This document shows, piece by piece, positions 48,463 through 64,000 of a DNA stretch of 64,000 nt. The stretch comes from a virus. The first letter of the stretch is position 1; the number at the start of each line of letters is the position of its first letter. The stretch lies in IMG/VR virus record IMGVR_UViG_3300024999_000068, positions 22,551 to 86,550 of that record, one strand, 5' to 3'. The position numbers and the translations under genes are program-made. The notes beneath the pieces are model-generated. The model worked only from the letters and a program-made list of their open reading frames with translations, ran no database searches and was not told the origin of the DNA.

Positions 48463-49079
48463 TTATCTAGGTGCAAATTCACCAAAGTATTTTATTTCTT
48501 CTTCTTTACGAATTTTTATTGCATCGTCTATATTGTTAAAATAACCTAAATTAATATGCTTTCTGTTAACCATTATCTGTGCCACCCATTTATACCAACC
48601 CACTCCAGTAACTCCTGAAGTATTATTTATTGCTAAGCTTAAATTTCTAGAGTTTTCTTTAGATTTGCATATTCTTAAATTATCGTTTGTACAATCTAAT
48701 GGATCTCTATTTATGTGGTCTACAATAAATCCTTCTGGAGTATCCATAATAAGATTATGTAGTCTAAATTGATTTTTCTCTATATTTGTAGTAGCATATC
48801 CAGTATTACTTAATCTCCATTTATAATCTTTTGCCTTATCTAATTTATCAAAAGAAATTTTAACCCTTGCTCTTTCCTTACATTGCCTATCTTCAAGAAT
48901 TATTTCAGCGTAATTTCTAAGATAATTATAATATTTTTATCCTTAGTTGTACGATCTCTTATTTCTCCTTATCTTTCTATGTGGTGTCTATGTTTTGAGC
49001 ATAAGTATTTATTTGATTCTTTATTAAACTGTACATATTTATTGCTTTGACATATTTCACATGTTTTAATATTTTTCAT
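48463..49079 (-). pseudogene. Broken HNH/AP2 homing endonuclease
   Basis: An intact gene can be traced in pieces. ATG 49079 opens MKNIKTCEICQSNKYVQFNK ending HHIER-stop; after the in-frame TAA the same frame goes on GEIRDRTTKDKNIII, then must shift by one base to continue as NYAEIILEDRQCKERARVKI, RLHNLIM, and finally the HNH block VDHINRDPLDCTNDNLRICK with an AP2-like tail (SGVTGVGWYKWVAQIM). One stop plus one frameshift disable it. The last 94 codons from 48747 remain open and could be expressed alone, but lack the zinc finger part. Confidence 0.8.
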
Positions 49080-49731: not shown

Positions 49732-52700
49732 TTATGAGCATTTGCTATAACCACAGGATTTACAACAAATACACGAACCTTCATTAATCAATGGTTCTTT
49801 ACATTCAGGACAAGAATTTGTGTCATTGATAATTTCTATGCTTTTTAACTCAGTTTTAATCTCTGTGTTTGTATTAATGATTTCAAATTTACTCTTAACA
49901 TCTTTTACTGCTTGTTTAAGAATATTGGCAATAGCATGAGGACAACTAGCACCTTTACTAACTGGTTTTCCTTTAACTCTAGCATTTGTATATGAAGAAC
50001 AAACGTCTACACTTTCTAGTTGGTCGATAATATTCTCAATAGGTATGCCACCACGTAATGAAAGTGAAATTAATCTTGATACTGCTTCTTGATTGCTTTT
50101 ACATGTGCCACTACTACCTTTGTTAGTAAATGTTTGATTGATATTGCCTTTTTCATCCCATGTTACTGTAACATAAGCATTTCCACAACCACTAACAAAT
50201 TTATAGGTTCTACTATCTGCTACAGATGGTGCTTTAATAACATGCCCTCGATCAATTATTTCAATAATTTCTTCGGTTGTATTACTATTCCCTGTGCTTA
50301 ATATTTGGTTTTCTCTACAACCATCTCGATAAACGGTAATACCTTTAACCCCACTCTTTGCTGCCATTATGTATACATTACCTACATCTTCTATTGTAGC
50401 ATTATTTGGCATATTTACTGTTTTTGATATGCTCAAACTTACATATTTTTGAATTTGTGCTAACACTTTCACATGCCACTCAGGAGAAATATCATTTGCA
50501 GTTACAAATATACGTTGAATTTCTTTTGTAAAAATATCATCTAATCCTTGAATTGAACCATTATTCTTGGCTATTCTATCTAGAATTTCTTCTGTATATA
50601 ATTTATTTTCCCTCAAATATTTCTCAAAAACAGAATCAAAAGTATAATATTTATCATTGTCATTATCTGTACGAATTGTTCCTAAAGACCATTCTGGTTC
50701 GATTCCACCAGTTGTTTTTGCGATAAAGGCGATAGAACCATTGGGAGCAATACTTGTCATACTTGAGCATCGTACCTCAATATCTTCTTCTTCCCATTTA
50801 CTGCCTTTCCATGCAGGATAAACTCCTCTTTCTTTAGCTAATTCAATATTGTATTTCAATGCTTTTTCACTAATAAATCCATATAATTCATCAATAAAAT
50901 CTAAACATTCTTGTGAATCATAAGGTATTTTAAGAGTATATAATAATTGTGCAAAACCCATAGTTCCTAATCCAATAGGTCTTAACATTTTTGTCATATC
51001 TTCGATCTTTTTAAGGGGAAGTTTATTCATAGTAATCATATTATCTAAGAATCTGAATGTTAGTTTAATATTTTCTTCTAATTTGACCCAATCAATTTTA
51101 TTATTTTTAATCACCTTCATTAAATTAATTGACGCTAGATTACAAGATGAATAAGGTACATTTACAAACTCATGGCAGTTATGAACCACAATACCTCCAA
51201 CTACTCCCCAATGAGTTAATGGTTCTGAAAAGTCATAAACTTTCTTTTTACCTAAATTTTTGATAGTCATTACTTTTGGACTTTTTAATTTAATTAAGTC
51301 TATTAAGTCATTAATCTTATATTGTTGCATGAATCCAATATTTTGATAAAAGAAAATTACATCGTTTAATCTACCAATATTTATATCATAACTTTCTTTA
51401 CACAAATAATCACCATTTGTAAATTTTACTGTAGTTGGTTTGTTTGTAGTGATATATGCTACAATACCGAATTCTTCTAAAGCTTTTTTCAATTGTAATG
51501 AGAATACTTTCGAAGTGGTTTTGTAAGATACTCTATGTGTTTTTATTACACATCCATTGGCAGAAAAACAACCTTTTAAGAAGTCTAATCTTTGTTCTTT
51601 CGTCCAATTAGTATATGTAATAGGGAATACTCTTTCTGGTAAAGAACTACCATCAAATCCATACTTAAGTAAAGTATTATTATATCCAGTTGTATAATAT
51701 GCTCTTTTCCCTTCAATTGGTTCTATATTGAACAGATCAAATACTTCTTTATCCTTATCTCCAATATGTATTTCTAATCCTAGATGTGCCTCAGAATTAA
51801 TTCTTCCAATACCTCCATCTCCTTGTAAAAAACCTAATTGAACAAATAAACTTTTAGACATGTTTGTTTTTCCAAAGTATGGCATTACTCTTTTCTTTAA
51901 TGCATGTTGAATTTCGCATTCTGTACCATTATCCAACATAAATGTGTGATTGGGAGTGCATTTCATTACTTGTTTATTGCTCAATTTTACTTCTATAACT
52001 TCTTTTTCTCCACTACACCAAACATTACCATCAGATACATCGCCATTGAAATTAATAACCTCTACTGTTTTTCCTGTTAATTCTCCAAATGTTTTATATC
52101 CTTCTACCGTTAGTAGTTTCATATCTTCTGTGAAACATGGATTTCCATAAACTTCCAAATTAATATGCGGATTCATATTTCCTTCATCCATATTAGTTTG
52201 ATAGCTAAGACCTGGTTCTCCTGTTTTATGAGCACATTGCATTATTTCATTCCATAAGTCTATTGCTTTAACAGTTTCATATACTAATCCGTTAAATTTT
52301 AAGTCCCAATTACTATTTTTCTCTACTGCTTCGACAAATTCTCTTGTAATACTGACTGAAATGTTCATGTTATTTAGCTCACTGGTATCATCTTTTGAAT
52401 GCACAAAGGAAAAAATTTCGGGATGATCACATGGTAAATCAATTTTAATTGCACCATTTCTTTTATTTCCTTGTTTAACTCTATTAACTACTTCATTAAA
52501 GATAAACATAAATGATACTACACCTGAAGCATTAGATCCAGAAGATTTACAACTTGCTCCATTAGGACGAATTTTTCTCATTGAAAATCCTGCTCCACCA
52601 GACATTTGAAAAATCTTAGCACATTCTGCCACCGTTTGAAAAATTCCTTCAATATTGTCTTCAATGTCAACAATAAAGCAAGAACTTAAAGATTGCGAAA

Positions 52701-52944
52701 GAGTTCCAGCATTAAAGATACATGGAGAAGAAGGAATAAATTCCATATTATTAATTTTTTCGTAAAATATATCTATGTAATAAGAAATATCTTTTTCGTT
52801 TTCAGCTTGAGCAATATTAGTTGCAACTCTTACAGCTATATCTGACCATGAATGTTCAATTAATTGTTTTTCATTATCTCTTAAAAAATATCTTTTTTCT
52901 AATAGTTTTTGTACGTTGTCATCTATTTTAGTCATTTTAGTCAA
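49732..52944 (-). CDS. nrdJ: Class II (B12-dependent) ribonucleotide reductase with intein
   Basis: Precursor of about 1070 residues from TTG 52944 (GGAGG eight bases before; an upstream in-frame TTG has no site). N-terminal half: IPSSPCIFNAGTLSQS, CFIVDIEDNIEGIF, SGGAGFSMRKIRPNG. An intein of 320 residues follows GNP and precedes CHEFVNVPYSSCNLASINL. The C-terminus has the NrdJ zinc ribbon CPECKEPLINEGSCICCKSC. No NrdB subunit is seen, fitting the adenosylcobalamin class. Reduces ribonucleotides to deoxyribonucleotides. After splicing the enzyme is ~750 residues, normal for the family. Confidence 0.9.
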   Translation of the reverse strand: MTKMTKIDDNVQKLLEKRYFLRDNEKQLIEHSWSDIAVRVATNIAQAENEKDISYYIDIFYEKINNMEFIPSSPCIFNAGTLSQSLSSCFIVDIEDNIEGIFQTVAECAKIFQMSGGAGFSMRKIRPNGASCKSSGSNASGVVSFMFIFNEVVNRVKQGNKRNGAIKIDLPCDHPEIFSFVHSKDDTSELNNMNISVSITREFVEAVEKNSNWDLKFNGLVYETVKAIDLWNEIMQCAHKTGEPGLSYQTNMDEGNMNPHINLEVYGNPCFTEDMKLLTVEGYKTFGELTGKTVEVINFNGDVSDGNVWCSGEKEVIEVKLSNKQVMKCTPNHTFMLDNGTECEIQHALKKRVMPYFGKTNMSKSLFVQLGFLQGDGGIGRINSEAHLGLEIHIGDKDKEVFDLFNIEPIEGKRAYYTTGYNNTLLKYGFDGSSLPERVFPITYTNWTKEQRLDFLKGCFSANGCVIKTHRVSYKTTSKVFSLQLKKALEEFGIVAYITTNKPTTVKFTNGDYLCKESYDINIGRLNDVIFFYQNIGFMQQYKINDLIDLIKLKSPKVMTIKNLGKKKVYDFSEPLTHWGVVGGIVVHNCHEFVNVPYSSCNLASINLMKVIKNNKIDWVKLEENIKLTFRFLDNMITMNKLPLKKIEDMTKMLRPIGLGTMGFAQLLYTLKIPYDSQECLDFIDELYGFISEKALKYNIELAKERGVYPAWKGSKWEEEDIEVRCSSMTSIAPNGSIAFIAKTTGGIEPEWSLGTIRTDNDNDKYYTFDSVFEKYLRENKLYTEEILDRIAKNNGSIQGLDDIFTKEIQRIFVTANDISPEWHVKVLAQIQKYVSLSISKTVNMPNNATIEDVGNVYIMAAKSGVKGITVYRDGCRENQILSTGNSNTTEEIIEIIDRGHVIKAPSVADSRTYKFVSGCGNAYVTVTWDEKGNINQTFTNKGSSGTCKSNQEAVSRLISLSLRGGIPIENIIDQLESVDVCSSYTNARVKGKPVSKGASCPHAIANILKQAVKDVKSKFEIINTNTEIKTELKSIEIINDTNSCPECKEPLINEGSCICCKSCGYSKCS
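51178..52137 (-). mobile_element. Intein with LAGLIDADG endonuclease in nrdJ
   Basis: Starts with Cys (CFTEDMKLLTVEGYKTFGEL), block B CTPNHTFM, endonuclease blocks LGFLQGDGG and LDFLKGCFSANG, ends GGIVVHN followed by Cys. All self-splicing residues (Cys1, TxxH, terminal HN, Cys+1) are present. The insertion point is NP|C of the conserved NPC(G/H)E site, whose Cys is the radical Cys in class II enzymes. Confidence 0.92.
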
Positions 52945-53013
52945 TTGTGCTTCCTCCAATATTTTATTTATTATTACTATAATCCAATCAAAAGATTATT
53001 TTATTTACTTTTA

Positions 53014-54689: not shown

Positions 54690-56954
54690 TTATTGGTTTG
54701 TTTGGTTTATTAGTAGTAACTCTTTAAGGTAAGTTTTTCTATTGAAATCTGCTTTCTTTTTTATTGCTCTATTTACAGTTTCTTTATCTCCAAAATGAAA
54801 TACTTTTTGCTTTGCCCTTGTTAATGATACATACATCAGATTGCTATTGAGCATAAAAGTATGTGCTTTAGGAGTTATCATTATAACTATTTTGGCTTGC
54901 CCTCCTTGAGATCGGTGAATAGATATACTATATCCAAGCTTAACATTTAATAAATCATTTTTAGTATAAATAACTAATTCATCAAACATTATAATTGCTT
55001 TTCCATATTCTATCTTAACAATTTTCCCAATCTCTCCATTTGCTACAAAAGTTTTATCATCTTCGTCGATATAATTATCATTATATCTTATTGCTTTGTA
55101 ATTATTCACTGACTGAATAACAAGATCATTCTCATAAAATTTTGTATCTCCAATTTGAATATGCATATTTCCTGATAATACATTAGGATTTGCTATAGGT
55201 TGTAAGTGTTTATTTATTGCTACTGTACCATAATCTCCAACATTATATGAAGATAAAATCATGATATCTTCTATAGAATTTCCTGATGATAATAGTTTTT
55301 TATATACTCCCATAACATTTTTCATTATATTTTCTTGCAACATAGGAACAAACATATATCCTTTATCATCACCAAATATTTGTGGATTCTTAGAATCTTC
55401 TAAGAATTTTTCACCATTTCTTGTTTTTGTTGCTACAGTTAATACCCCTCCTTCACCATATCTAAATATTTGAGTAAGAGAAACTATTGGAATTAAATTT
55501 GAATTAATTAAATCATAGAAAACATTACCTGCTCCAACAGAAGGAATTTGGGAAGAATCTCCCACCATCAACAATTTAGTTTTAGAAAAATCAATTGCTT
55601 CTAATAAATGTTTCATTAAAAATACATCTGTCATCCCAAATTCATCGACAATCACTACGCTATATGGTAATTTACTTTCTTCGTTATAACCCCATATTGG
55701 GGGTTTATATAATAATCCTCTGTGTATTGTTGATGCAGATTCTTTAGTAAATTCAGCAAGAACTTTACTCGCTCTGCCAGTTGGAGAAAATAAAGCAAAT
55801 GATCTATTAGTATCCTTCAACATATCAATTACTGATTTAGTTGTAGCACTCTTCCCTGAACCGGCATTTCCATTCAATATACAAACATTAGAATTACATA
55901 CCATAGGTAAAATTTTATGTTGTTGATCCGTAAGAACAATATCACCATTATTCTTATATTTTTCTGTATCTATATTCCATTTATTTGTTAACTTCAAACC
56001 ATCGAGTATTCTTTTAGCAATATATAATTCTGTTTGATATGTTTCTTCTAATGCAACAGTGTTTAAACCTTTATCAAAGTGAATATCCTTATCATTCTTA
56101 ATAATATCAACAAAGTGTTCAATACATTTTTTTGCTAAAGATTCGGATTGTTTTCTTAAAACTTTAATATCAATTTTAGTATTTCCATCATTCTCATTTT
56201 CTTCTAGTAAAAACATAATTGCTGATTTTTGTCTTTGGCTAGAAGTTTGTAAATCAAATGTGAAATCAATTGGTGGTTTTTCTCCCTTGTTTTTCATTGC
56301 TATACAATCTTTATTAAACTCAAGAAGTATTTTATCTGCTGTTTTGAAGGCTATTCTGGATAATCCACACAAACACTTATACGGATTATCTTGTAGTTTT
56401 TCTTTAATCTTATCCACTGAACCATATTTATCATATAATGCTTTTAATATTTTAAATTCAATAAATCCTTTAAATTCCGTAACTAACTCTCCTAATACAA
56501 AGTTTTCAATGATTTTTCTTTTGATTACCTCAAATCTAACTTCTCCAATATTGTATAATTTCTTTAAATCAATATCTTCTAAACGATTATTAATAACTCT
56601 ATCAATAATATCTGGATATTCTCTCATTACTTCATCAACTTGACTAGTGCTGTCTAATATACTTTGCAGAAATAATCTAGTAGAAGTTTCTGTTTTTGGT
56701 ATATCTCTTCCTATATTAATTACTTTATAAGATATACCATTTTTACCTTCTTTTTCTTCTGATTTTATACTGTACTCAATTCCTATCTCAAGATCAGGTA
56801 GATTGCCCAAAATACTAACATTGCCATATGTGTTTTGTGATATATGTGGATATTTAGTTGCGTCAACTTCTAAGGCATATATTTTATAATCATCTGTATT
56901 GTAGGGGTTTGCGACTACAACGCCTTTAAATTCGTAAATTATTTTATTTTTCAA
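54690..56954 (-). CDS. RecD2-like SF1B DNA helicase
   Basis: 754 residues, TTG start. The N-terminal third has a RecD2-type OB and helix-hairpin-helix layout (RLEDIDLKKLYNIGEVRFEV). Walker A CILNGNAGSGKSATTK, Walker B PYSVVIVDEFGMTD, motif III LMVGDSSQIPSVGAG, and at the end GYSISIHRSQGGQAKIVI and YVSLTRAK. It unwinds DNA 5' to 3' in replication or recombination. It follows the polymerase gene with 16 bases between, one operon. Confidence 0.87.
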   Translation of the reverse strand: MKNKIIYEFKGVVVANPYNTDDYKIYALEVDATKYPHISQNTYGNVSILGNLPDLEIGIEYSIKSEEKEGKNGISYKVINIGRDIPKTETSTRLFLQSILDSTSQVDEVMREYPDIIDRVINNRLEDIDLKKLYNIGEVRFEVIKRKIIENFVLGELVTEFKGFIEFKILKALYDKYGSVDKIKEKLQDNPYKCLCGLSRIAFKTADKILLEFNKDCIAMKNKGEKPPIDFTFDLQTSSQRQKSAIMFLLEENENDGNTKIDIKVLRKQSESLAKKCIEHFVDIIKNDKDIHFDKGLNTVALEETYQTELYIAKRILDGLKLTNKWNIDTEKYKNNGDIVLTDQQHKILPMVCNSNVCILNGNAGSGKSATTKSVIDMLKDTNRSFALFSPTGRASKVLAEFTKESASTIHRGLLYKPPIWGYNEESKLPYSVVIVDEFGMTDVFLMKHLLEAIDFSKTKLLMVGDSSQIPSVGAGNVFYDLINSNLIPIVSLTQIFRYGEGGVLTVATKTRNGEKFLEDSKNPQIFGDDKGYMFVPMLQENIMKNVMGVYKKLLSSGNSIEDIMILSSYNVGDYGTVAINKHLQPIANPNVLSGNMHIQIGDTKFYENDLVIQSVNNYKAIRYNDNYIDEDDKTFVANGEIGKIVKIEYGKAIIMFDELVIYTKNDLLNVKLGYSISIHRSQGGQAKIVIMITPKAHTFMLNSNLMYVSLTRAKQKVFHFGDKETVNRAIKKKADFNRKTYLKELLLINQTNQ

Positions 56955-62962: not shown

Positions 62963-63709
62963 TTACTTAACTATTTTTGCATCAAATCCATATTTTTCAT
63001 ATAAATGACTATTGTTAAAATTTTTTATTTTTATCTCCTCATTTAATCTTACTATAATAGCATCATCTAATTCATCAAAATAACCTAAATGTTTTTTCTT
63101 TCCATAAAATATCTGTAAATGCCATTTATTCATCTGTTTGTTAAAATAAACTCCTTGGCAACCACTACTATTATTTATATTTGGGTTCCTATTAACATTA
63201 TTTTGTCTATGATCTGTAGTTCTGAGATTATATTTACGATTATTACTTTTTTTTCTATCGATATGATCAATTTCTATTTCTGGATTATTGACACCCATAA
63301 TAAGCCTATGTATTCTAATTGTTTGTTTTTCGTCTTCATCATTTTCTGATATACTAGAAACAATATATCCTCGTTTGTTTTTATGCCAACAATATACTTG
63401 TATCTTATCATAGTCTTCTAAATCAAATTCAAAGTAATTATTTCTAAAATCATAACCTATACTATATTCACCAGTTAAATCATATGTATTAGTTTTGCTA
63501 CATCTAGCAATATTAACTTCTTTTTGCAAACATCCACAACTTCTAGTATTTCCATTTCTTAAACTAGTTCCATTTACTGTAAATATAGTTTTAAGATGAC
63601 AACTACATTGAACAATCCAATGACACACCCTGTGTTTATTAATGTGAGAAAACTCTAAAACTAATAATCTATCAAATGTTTTCCCTTTTAAATCAATTAT
63701 TTTTCCCAT
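62963..63709 (-). CDS. HNH/AP2 homing endonuclease
   Basis: 248 residues from ATG 63709 (GTAAGGATA before it). N-terminal zinc-like part (HWIVQCSC, GNTRSCGC), HNH core EIDHIDRKKSNNRKYNLRTT, then AP2-like SGCQGVYFNKQMNKWHLQIF. Inserted between replicative helicase and primase genes, a favourite niche of such elements. Same family as the broken copy at 48463-49079. Confidence 0.88.
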   Translation of the reverse strand: MGKIIDLKGKTFDRLLVLEFSHINKHRVCHWIVQCSCHLKTIFTVNGTSLRNGNTRSCGCLQKEVNIARCSKTNTYDLTGEYSIGYDFRNNYFEFDLEDYDKIQVYCWHKNKRGYIVSSISENDEDEKQTIRIHRLIMGVNNPEIEIDHIDRKKSNNRKYNLRTTDHRQNNVNRNPNINNSSGCQGVYFNKQMNKWHLQIFYGKKKHLGYFDELDDAIIVRLNEEIKIKNFNNSHLYEKYGFDAKIVK

Positions 63710-63720
63710 ATATAATATCC

Positions 63721-64000
63721 TTACCAATCCATAGGTATATTAACTATACCTAATTCTTTATATAAATTTCTCGAATAATCATTTTCGCTGATAATCTGAA
63801 ATTCATCTGTACTTCCAAATCTATTCTTAGTGACAAATATAATAGTATAAGACTTATTTTTGTCAAGTTTAAATGGTATGCGAGTAAGTTTATTTTTACC
63901 TTCTAATCTAAAACATTTTAATTCATTTTTACCACCTTCAAATTCATCATCAAATGGTTTTCTTATCATTAAATTTGTTGATGCTACATCTACGATATTC
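63721..64000 (-). CDS. Partial replicative helicase (DnaB-like), C-terminal end
   Basis: The frame is open to the right window edge, reading NIVDVASTNLMIRKPFDDEF, then NELKCFRLEGKN and IIFVTKNRFGSTDEFQI. The last block is the DnaB-type motif (K-N-R-x-G-x-T). It would be the hexameric fork helicase. The N-terminal part lies outside the window. Confidence 0.75.
   Translation of the reverse strand, partial: NIVDVASTNLMIRKPFDDEFEGGKNELKCFRLEGKNKLTRIPFKLDKNKSYTIIFVTKNRFGSTDEFQIISENDYSRNLYKELGIVNIPMDW

What the first reader, a model, noticed from the sequence alone, without database searches (positions are those of the whole stretch)
51178..52137. Intein at the radical-cysteine site of class II ribonucleotide reductase
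The intein lies between NP and the Cys of the NPC(G/H)E motif, so the Cys+1 used for splicing is also the catalytic radical Cys. The enzyme cannot work before splicing, which couples dNTP synthesis to intein activity.
Basis: partly seen in the sequence, partly recalled or inferred. Interest (0 to 1): 0.62.

Follow-up and report, generated by a model that had tools for sequence, protein, structure and literature searches.

The report
Phage ribonucleotide reductase with an intein
A phage gene for the DNA-building-block enzyme ribonucleotide reductase carries a self-removing protein insert exactly at the enzyme's radical cysteine, a favourite and already known landing site for such inserts; the unusual part is that the insert's DNA-cutting domain always has an asparagine where a metal-binding acid is expected.

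Summary
Window 52137..51178 (minus strand) encodes a 320-residue class 1 intein inside a class II (B12-type) ribonucleotide reductase gene of an 86.5-kb virus record, between NP and Cys of the NPC(H)E motif. Alignment to the solved Thermotoga maritima enzyme puts that Cys on Cys322, the thiyl-radical Cys. A relative (L005) with exteins 97% identical to those of another carrier (L004) has the uninterrupted site.

The precursor should indeed be inactive, but that holds for almost any intein in an active site. NP^C is a recurrent site in phage, bacterial and archaeal RNRs, and alleles of this same family sit one codon downstream, where the radical Cys is residue -1; so using the radical Cys as splicing nucleophile is not required. 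I found no sign of redox or temperature control. Best explanation: a mobile intein parasitising an invariant site.

A by-product is more interesting. In 32 compact members (26 distinct sequences), the second LAGLIDADG motif reads ANG, with Asn at a catalytic acid position. Yet in the closest pair the endonuclease domain is the most conserved part (omega about 0.06), and the intein moves horizontally.

The parts
52138..52944 (-). N-extein of NrdJ (class II ribonucleotide reductase alpha), ending ...LEVYGNP; start taken as TTG 52944
   Evidence: start inferred from the ribosome-binding site and from relatives L003-L006
51178..52137 (-). 320-residue class 1 intein (CFTED...VVHN)
52135..52137 (-). 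intein Cys1, nucleophile of splicing step 1
   Evidence: invariant in the 18-member alignment
51946..51957 (-). block B TPNH: Thr61 and His64
   Evidence: Thr61 and His64 invariant; role as defined in PMC4031507
51277..51861 (-). LAGLIDADG (DOD) homing endonuclease domain, intein residues about 93-287
   Evidence: Pfam LAGLIDADG_3, fold match to PI-PfuI, PI-SceI and I-DmoI; limits approximate
51817..51819 (-). Asp107, catalytic acid of LAGLIDADG motif P1 (LGFLQGDG)
51556..51558 (-). Asn194 in motif P2 (FLKGCFSANG), at the position of the second catalytic acid
   Evidence: aligned with the acid in 1dq3 FIAGLFDAEG; invariant Asn in the compact family
51232..51234 (-). block F Asp302 (VYDFSEP)
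   Evidence: invariant; role from PMC4031507
51178..51183 (-). block G His319-Asn320, Asn cyclisation
   Evidence: invariant
51175..51177 (-). Cys+1 of the C-extein = radical Cys of the mature enzyme (T. maritima Cys322)
   Evidence: alignment to 1xje/1xjk
49732..51177 (-). C-extein of NrdJ with barrel remainder, TSCPD domain and Cys-rich C-terminus (stop codon included)
51142..51144 (-). Cys of SCNL, aligned with T. maritima Cys333 (redox pair)
   Evidence: role from general knowledge of RNR

Best explanation
This is a mobile class 1 LAGLIDADG intein in a phage class II ribonucleotide reductase. The NrdJ precursor is made with the finger loop that carries the radical Cys cut by 320 residues. 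Cys1 starts an N-to-S acyl shift, the +1 Cys takes over the N-extein, Asn320 cyclises and releases the intein, and the +1 Cys becomes the radical Cys of the mature enzyme. The site is favoured because its DNA codes for an invariant motif: a homing endonuclease can find it in any RNR, and imprecise loss of the intein kills the enzyme. Shown here: anatomy, site, empty alleles, horizontal movement, conserved splicing residues. Inferred: splicing activity, precursor inactivity, endonuclease-driven homing. No regulatory role is supported.
For: Exact coordinates and intact splicing residues. Cys595 aligns with T. maritima Cys322. Class II family above its cut-off, no R2 or NrdD in the record. Empty site: L005 and L004 have 97.2% identical exteins, with 44/45 and 45/45 nt identical flanks, and only L004 has the intein. 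Movement: window-L003 exteins 68% but inteins 82%; window-L004 exteins 82% but inteins 54%. Site fidelity: 26 of 28 viral loci at NP^C, 2 one codon on. Native inteins lie near active sites in general (PMC3359363). Model pLDDT 93.5 with Hint + LAGLIDADG fold.
Against: No splicing data. Residue -1 is Pro, which is reported to impair step 1 in another intein, NrdJ-1 (PMC13123727), so splicing could be slow in this context. The second LAGLIDADG acid is Asn, so homing by double-strand cleavage is not assured.
Confidence: 0.92

Rival explanations
1. Regulatory intein: splicing is conditional (redox, temperature or B12 state) and serves as a post-translational switch for dNTP synthesis during infection.
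For: The insertion splits the catalytic Cys, so it would be an efficient switch. Pro at -1 could make step 1 slow (effect in NrdJ-1: PMC13123727). In Aquifex R2 an intein was reported to aid iron loading (PMC8772380).
Against: Close relatives lack the intein altogether (L005, L006). Inteins of the same family occur in diverse RNRs of unrelated phages and one codon off. No Cys in the 32 N-extein residues before the splice site, no riboswitch. Patchy presence fits a parasite better.
Confidence: 0.06
2. Decayed intein: splicing is lost and the gene is a pseudogene or makes a dead enzyme.
For: No direct evidence; Asn at P2 and Pro at -1 are the only blemishes.
Against: Single open frame with all class 1 residues and the RNR active-site motifs. 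dN/dS of exteins and intein well below 1.
Confidence: 0.02

Closest known systems
rir1 intein alleles of cellular RNR (e.g. rir1-b, 75 sequences in PMC4071816) and the Mth RIR1 mini-intein
   Same: RNR alpha; cellular NP^C inteins with CGEQP... C-exteins were found here in Bacillota and Asgard archaea. From memory, Mth RIR1 is also at Pro^Cys of a class II enzyme.
   Different: The cellular type is longer (mostly 358-418 residues in the loci measured), begins mostly CVTGD and usually has ADG at P2. Whether rir1-b is this exact site was not verified.
NCBIfam NF006207 (PRK08332), B12-dependent RNR model of 1684 positions
   Same: The window protein aligns from inside the intein through into the C-extein in one stretch (305-724), which implies an intein at the equivalent place.
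   Different: Far below that model's cut-off; the curated protein is much larger.
Intein-containing RNR of Nodularia phages (MK605242 and others)
   Same: Same intein family (39% identity), NP^C, SANG at P2, annotated 'intein-containing RnR' by the depositors.
   Different: Cyanobacterial host, other RNR sequence, 336-residue intein.
NrdJ-1 split intein
   Same: Intein at the NPC motif of NrdJ (native exteins NPC and SEI, PMC13123727).
   Different: Split, inserted one residue downstream with Ser as +1; the radical Cys is residue -1.
PI-PfuI (PDB 1dq3)
   Same: Best sequence match among solved structures and third by fold. From memory it is an intein of P. furiosus RNR.
   Different: P2 reads DAEG (acid present); 454 residues.

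Membership tests
Class 1 intein (Hint) | Cys/Ser1, Thr B:7, His B:10, Asp F:4, His G:6, Asn G:7, Cys/Ser/Thr +1 | tested here: met
   C1, T61, H64, D302, H319, N320 invariant in 18 relatives; +1 is Cys in all 28 viral family loci except L039, where it is Ser; roles per PMC4031507
Class 1 intein (Hint) | Autocatalytic excision with extein ligation | not testable with these tools
   needs expression
Class II ribonucleotide reductase NrdJ | NrdJ family match, NPCxE and SCNL motifs, TSCPD, no R2 partner | tested here: met
Class II ribonucleotide reductase NrdJ | Adenosylcobalamin-dependent activity | not testable with these tools
   biochemistry needed
LAGLIDADG (DOD) homing endonuclease | Two-motif DOD fold inside Hint | tested here: met
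LAGLIDADG (DOD) homing endonuclease | Acidic residue at the end of motif P1 | tested here: met
   Asp107 GDG
LAGLIDADG (DOD) homing endonuclease | Acidic residue at the end of motif P2 | tested here: not met
   Asn194 (ANG) in the window and all 31 full-length compact relatives counted by codon
Conditional (redox-switch) intein | Cys partner near the N-splice site that could trap Cys1 | tested here: not met
   no Cys in the 32 N-extein residues before the splice site; a Cys1-Cys+1 or Cys1-Cys60 disulfide cannot be excluded
rir1-b intein allele | Same insertion site as the published allele | tested here: inconclusive
   PMC4071816 lists rir1-b without the site in the passages read

The most novel reading that the evidence does not exclude
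The compact RNR intein family carries a working homing endonuclease whose second LAGLIDADG active site has lost its metal-binding acid (fixed Asn), so that it cuts by altered chemistry, for example nicking one strand at the radical-Cys codon, and still homes.
Probability: 0.35. Interest if true: 0.55.

Novelty: new member of a known kind. Interest (0 to 1): 0.27.

Why it matters
As found, it is one more intein at a favoured RNR site, and it confirms that parasitic inteins settle in codons that cannot change. What would matter is the by-product. A widespread phage intein family keeps its homing endonuclease under purifying selection although one of the two catalytic acids is always Asn. If it still homes, LAGLIDADG enzymes have a natural one-acid or nickase form, useful for understanding homing and for genome engineering. 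If it does not, something other than homing keeps the domain.

Tried and rejected
(1) Regulatory coupling: considered, not supported (see rivals). (2) Compensating acid for Asn194: Asp251 of the nearly invariant ESYDINI looked like a partner, because Bacteroides, Vibrio and Rheinheimera phage inteins at the same site have DG at P2 and Arg there. But many long cellular NP^C inteins with ADG also have an acid (Glu or Asp) near that place, so it is not specific compensation. (3) Asn as mere decay: judged unlikely for the compact family because it is fixed in members down to about 40% identity, with both AAT and AAC codons (29 and 3). In the long cellular type Asn is sporadic (L081 ANG, its close relative L083 ADG) and may be decay. 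(4) Simple HEN deletion for mini-intein L038 against full-length L021: rejected as a recent deletion; flanks are 95% identical but splicing-domain DNA only 76-78%, so the intein allele was replaced. (5) Co-conversion tract around the window-L003 intein: not seen; flank identity is not raised next to the junctions. (6) Second RNR in the record and cobalamin riboswitch: not found. (8) The genome-contig scan used the ANG motif as one of its two seeds, so its loci are weak evidence that Asn is invariant; the viral scan and the profile searches were not seeded with it.

Full report
WHAT IS THERE. The minus-strand ORF 52959..49732 is one open frame of 1075 codons. G000 is an 86,550-base virus record in which the window is bases 22551-86550. 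The protein is a class II RNR: TIGR02504 NrdJ_Z scores 519 bits against a cut-off of 400, Pfam gives the RNR N domain, barrel and TSCPD, and the record has no detectable class I beta subunit or NrdD.

IS THE CYS THE RADICAL CYS. phmmer aligns the N-part to T. maritima NrdJ (1xje, 1xjk) up to query 275 = Cys322 and the C-part from query 594 = residue 321. The mature motif NPCHE therefore places the +1 Cys on Cys322, and the later SCNL Cys on Cys333. That Cys322 carries the thiyl radical and Cys333 belongs to the redox pair is from general knowledge of the T. maritima structure, not tested here; that all RNRs use a thiyl radical is stated in PMC6370689.

EMPTY SITE. L005 encodes the uninterrupted protein (...EVFGNPCMEY...). 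Its exteins are 97.2% identical to those of L004, which has the intein, and the DNA on both sides of the insertion matches at 44/45 and 45/45 bases. L006 is also empty. So the insert is a clean, precise insertion.

THE INTEIN. All class 1 splicing residues are present and invariant in 18 relatives: C1, T61, H64, D302, H319, N320 (roles in PMC4031507). AlphaFold2 with the family alignment gives pLDDT 93.5. Foldseek finds the full-length LAGLIDADG inteins TliVMA, PI-PfuI and PI-SceI first, then mini-inteins and I-DmoI; whole-chain TM-scores are modest (about 0.4), probably because the two domains are oriented differently.

HOW COMMON THE SITE IS. A viral scan with the intein gave 28 true family loci: 23 full length and 5 endonuclease-less mini-inteins of 125-134 residues; 26 are at NP^C and 2 one codon on. 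Their exteins are diverse RNR alpha sequences. Unrelated inteins occupy the same place in Bacteroides phage SJC03 (ending SQ^C; DAC19 is empty), in Vibrio and Rheinheimera phages (NL^C), and another in a Moorella phage. Profile searches of 398 genomes of one bacterial phylum and 195 of one archaeal phylum, centred on a Syntrophomonadaceae and a Heimdallarchaeota MAG, gave 43 and 61 genomes with intein-like matches (in any protein); of the loci opened, 14 of 20 and 4 of 10 have the intein start at NPC. NCBI has a curated model of a B12 RNR that aligns through this junction, intein included. The finding is thus an ordinary member of a well-populated site.

MOBILITY. Window and L003 have exteins 68% identical but inteins 82%; window and L004 have exteins 82% but inteins 54%. 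L013 shares 71% of the intein although its C-extein (CGEQPLPKDGACNLGSMN) is clearly different. This discordance requires horizontal movement or replacement of intein alleles between phages.

REGULATION. The precursor is very probably inactive because the finger loop is broken, but this is the general situation: native inteins lie on average 8.3 A from active-site residues against 21.1 A for other Cys/Ser/Thr sites (PMC3359363). Members of the same family one codon downstream (L024 and L044 NPC^C, L039 NPC^S) must use another nucleophile, and so does NrdJ-1 (NPC^SEI, PMC13123727). So nothing selects for the radical Cys itself as nucleophile. Pro at -1 is a real curiosity: in NrdJ-1 it compromised splicing, yet it is the native residue at every NP^C intein.

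THE ENDONUCLEASE ANOMALY. Motif P1 is GDG, as expected. Motif P2 is FLKGCFSANG; in PI-PfuI the aligned residues are FIAGLFDAEG, so Asn194 stands where the second catalytic acid is expected. In the codon alignment of 32 compact members (26 distinct sequences once identical and near-identical copies are collapsed) all have Asn (29 AAT, 3 AAC). Part of this set came from a scan seeded with ANG, but the window and the 23 viral full-length loci did not. The long cellular NP^C inteins mostly have ADG or SDG. Between window and L003 the endonuclease domain is 89% identical with dN/dS about 0.06, while the splicing domain is 70% identical with about 0.16; with L013 the pattern is similar by identity (78% against 61%), but for more distant pairs the two domains evolve alike. 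dS is near saturation in most pairs, so the ratios are rough. Mini-inteins in the same family show that the domain is dispensable for carrying an intein at this site, so its retention needs a reason. A working but non-canonical endonuclease is the most novel reading; a domain kept for another reason, or slow decay, is not excluded. In P. horikoshii VMA, loss of the block E acid went with loss of activity (PMC8966425), which argues for caution. I did not find this Asn variant described in the papers searched, but the library is incomplete.

VERDICT. Observation confirmed; interpretation right about the site, overstated about coupling. A new member of a known kind, interest low to moderate, with one testable anomaly in the endonuclease.

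Noticed in passing
window 51556-51558 and loci L012-L034, L042-L047, L050, L060: Fixed Asn at the second catalytic acid position of the LAGLIDADG domain in the whole compact RNR intein family, with the domain under purifying selection.
   Followed up: partly
L004:4214-5443: A second, unrelated 410-residue intein in the same NrdJ gene, between SSP and C of SSPCIFNAG near the N-terminus; absent from the window and from L005.
   Followed up: partly
L005:43-1986: An apparent intein inside a RecD2-like helicase (THK^CIPKD...FN^CQGSG); the RecD2-like helicase in the window (54690-56954) has none.
   Followed up: no
L024, L044 and L039: Members of the same intein family inserted one codon downstream (NPC^C, NPC^S), so the insertion point has slid by one codon within one family.
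   Followed up: partly
L035-L039: 125-134 residue mini-inteins of the same family without endonuclease, candidates for compact splicing tools.
   Followed up: no
L007:1407-2369 and L010: Inteins at the same RNR site in Bacteroides and Rheinheimera phages ending in Gln (SQ^C, GQ^C) instead of Asn.
   Followed up: no
window 48463-48747 and 62963-63727: HNH_3 endonuclease genes near the nrdJ region (the second below Pfam's cut-off), suggesting several homing endonucleases in this phage.
   Followed up: no
window 52944-52959: The first TTG of the ORF lies in a GGAGG ribosome-binding site; the likely start is TTG at 52944.
   Followed up: partly
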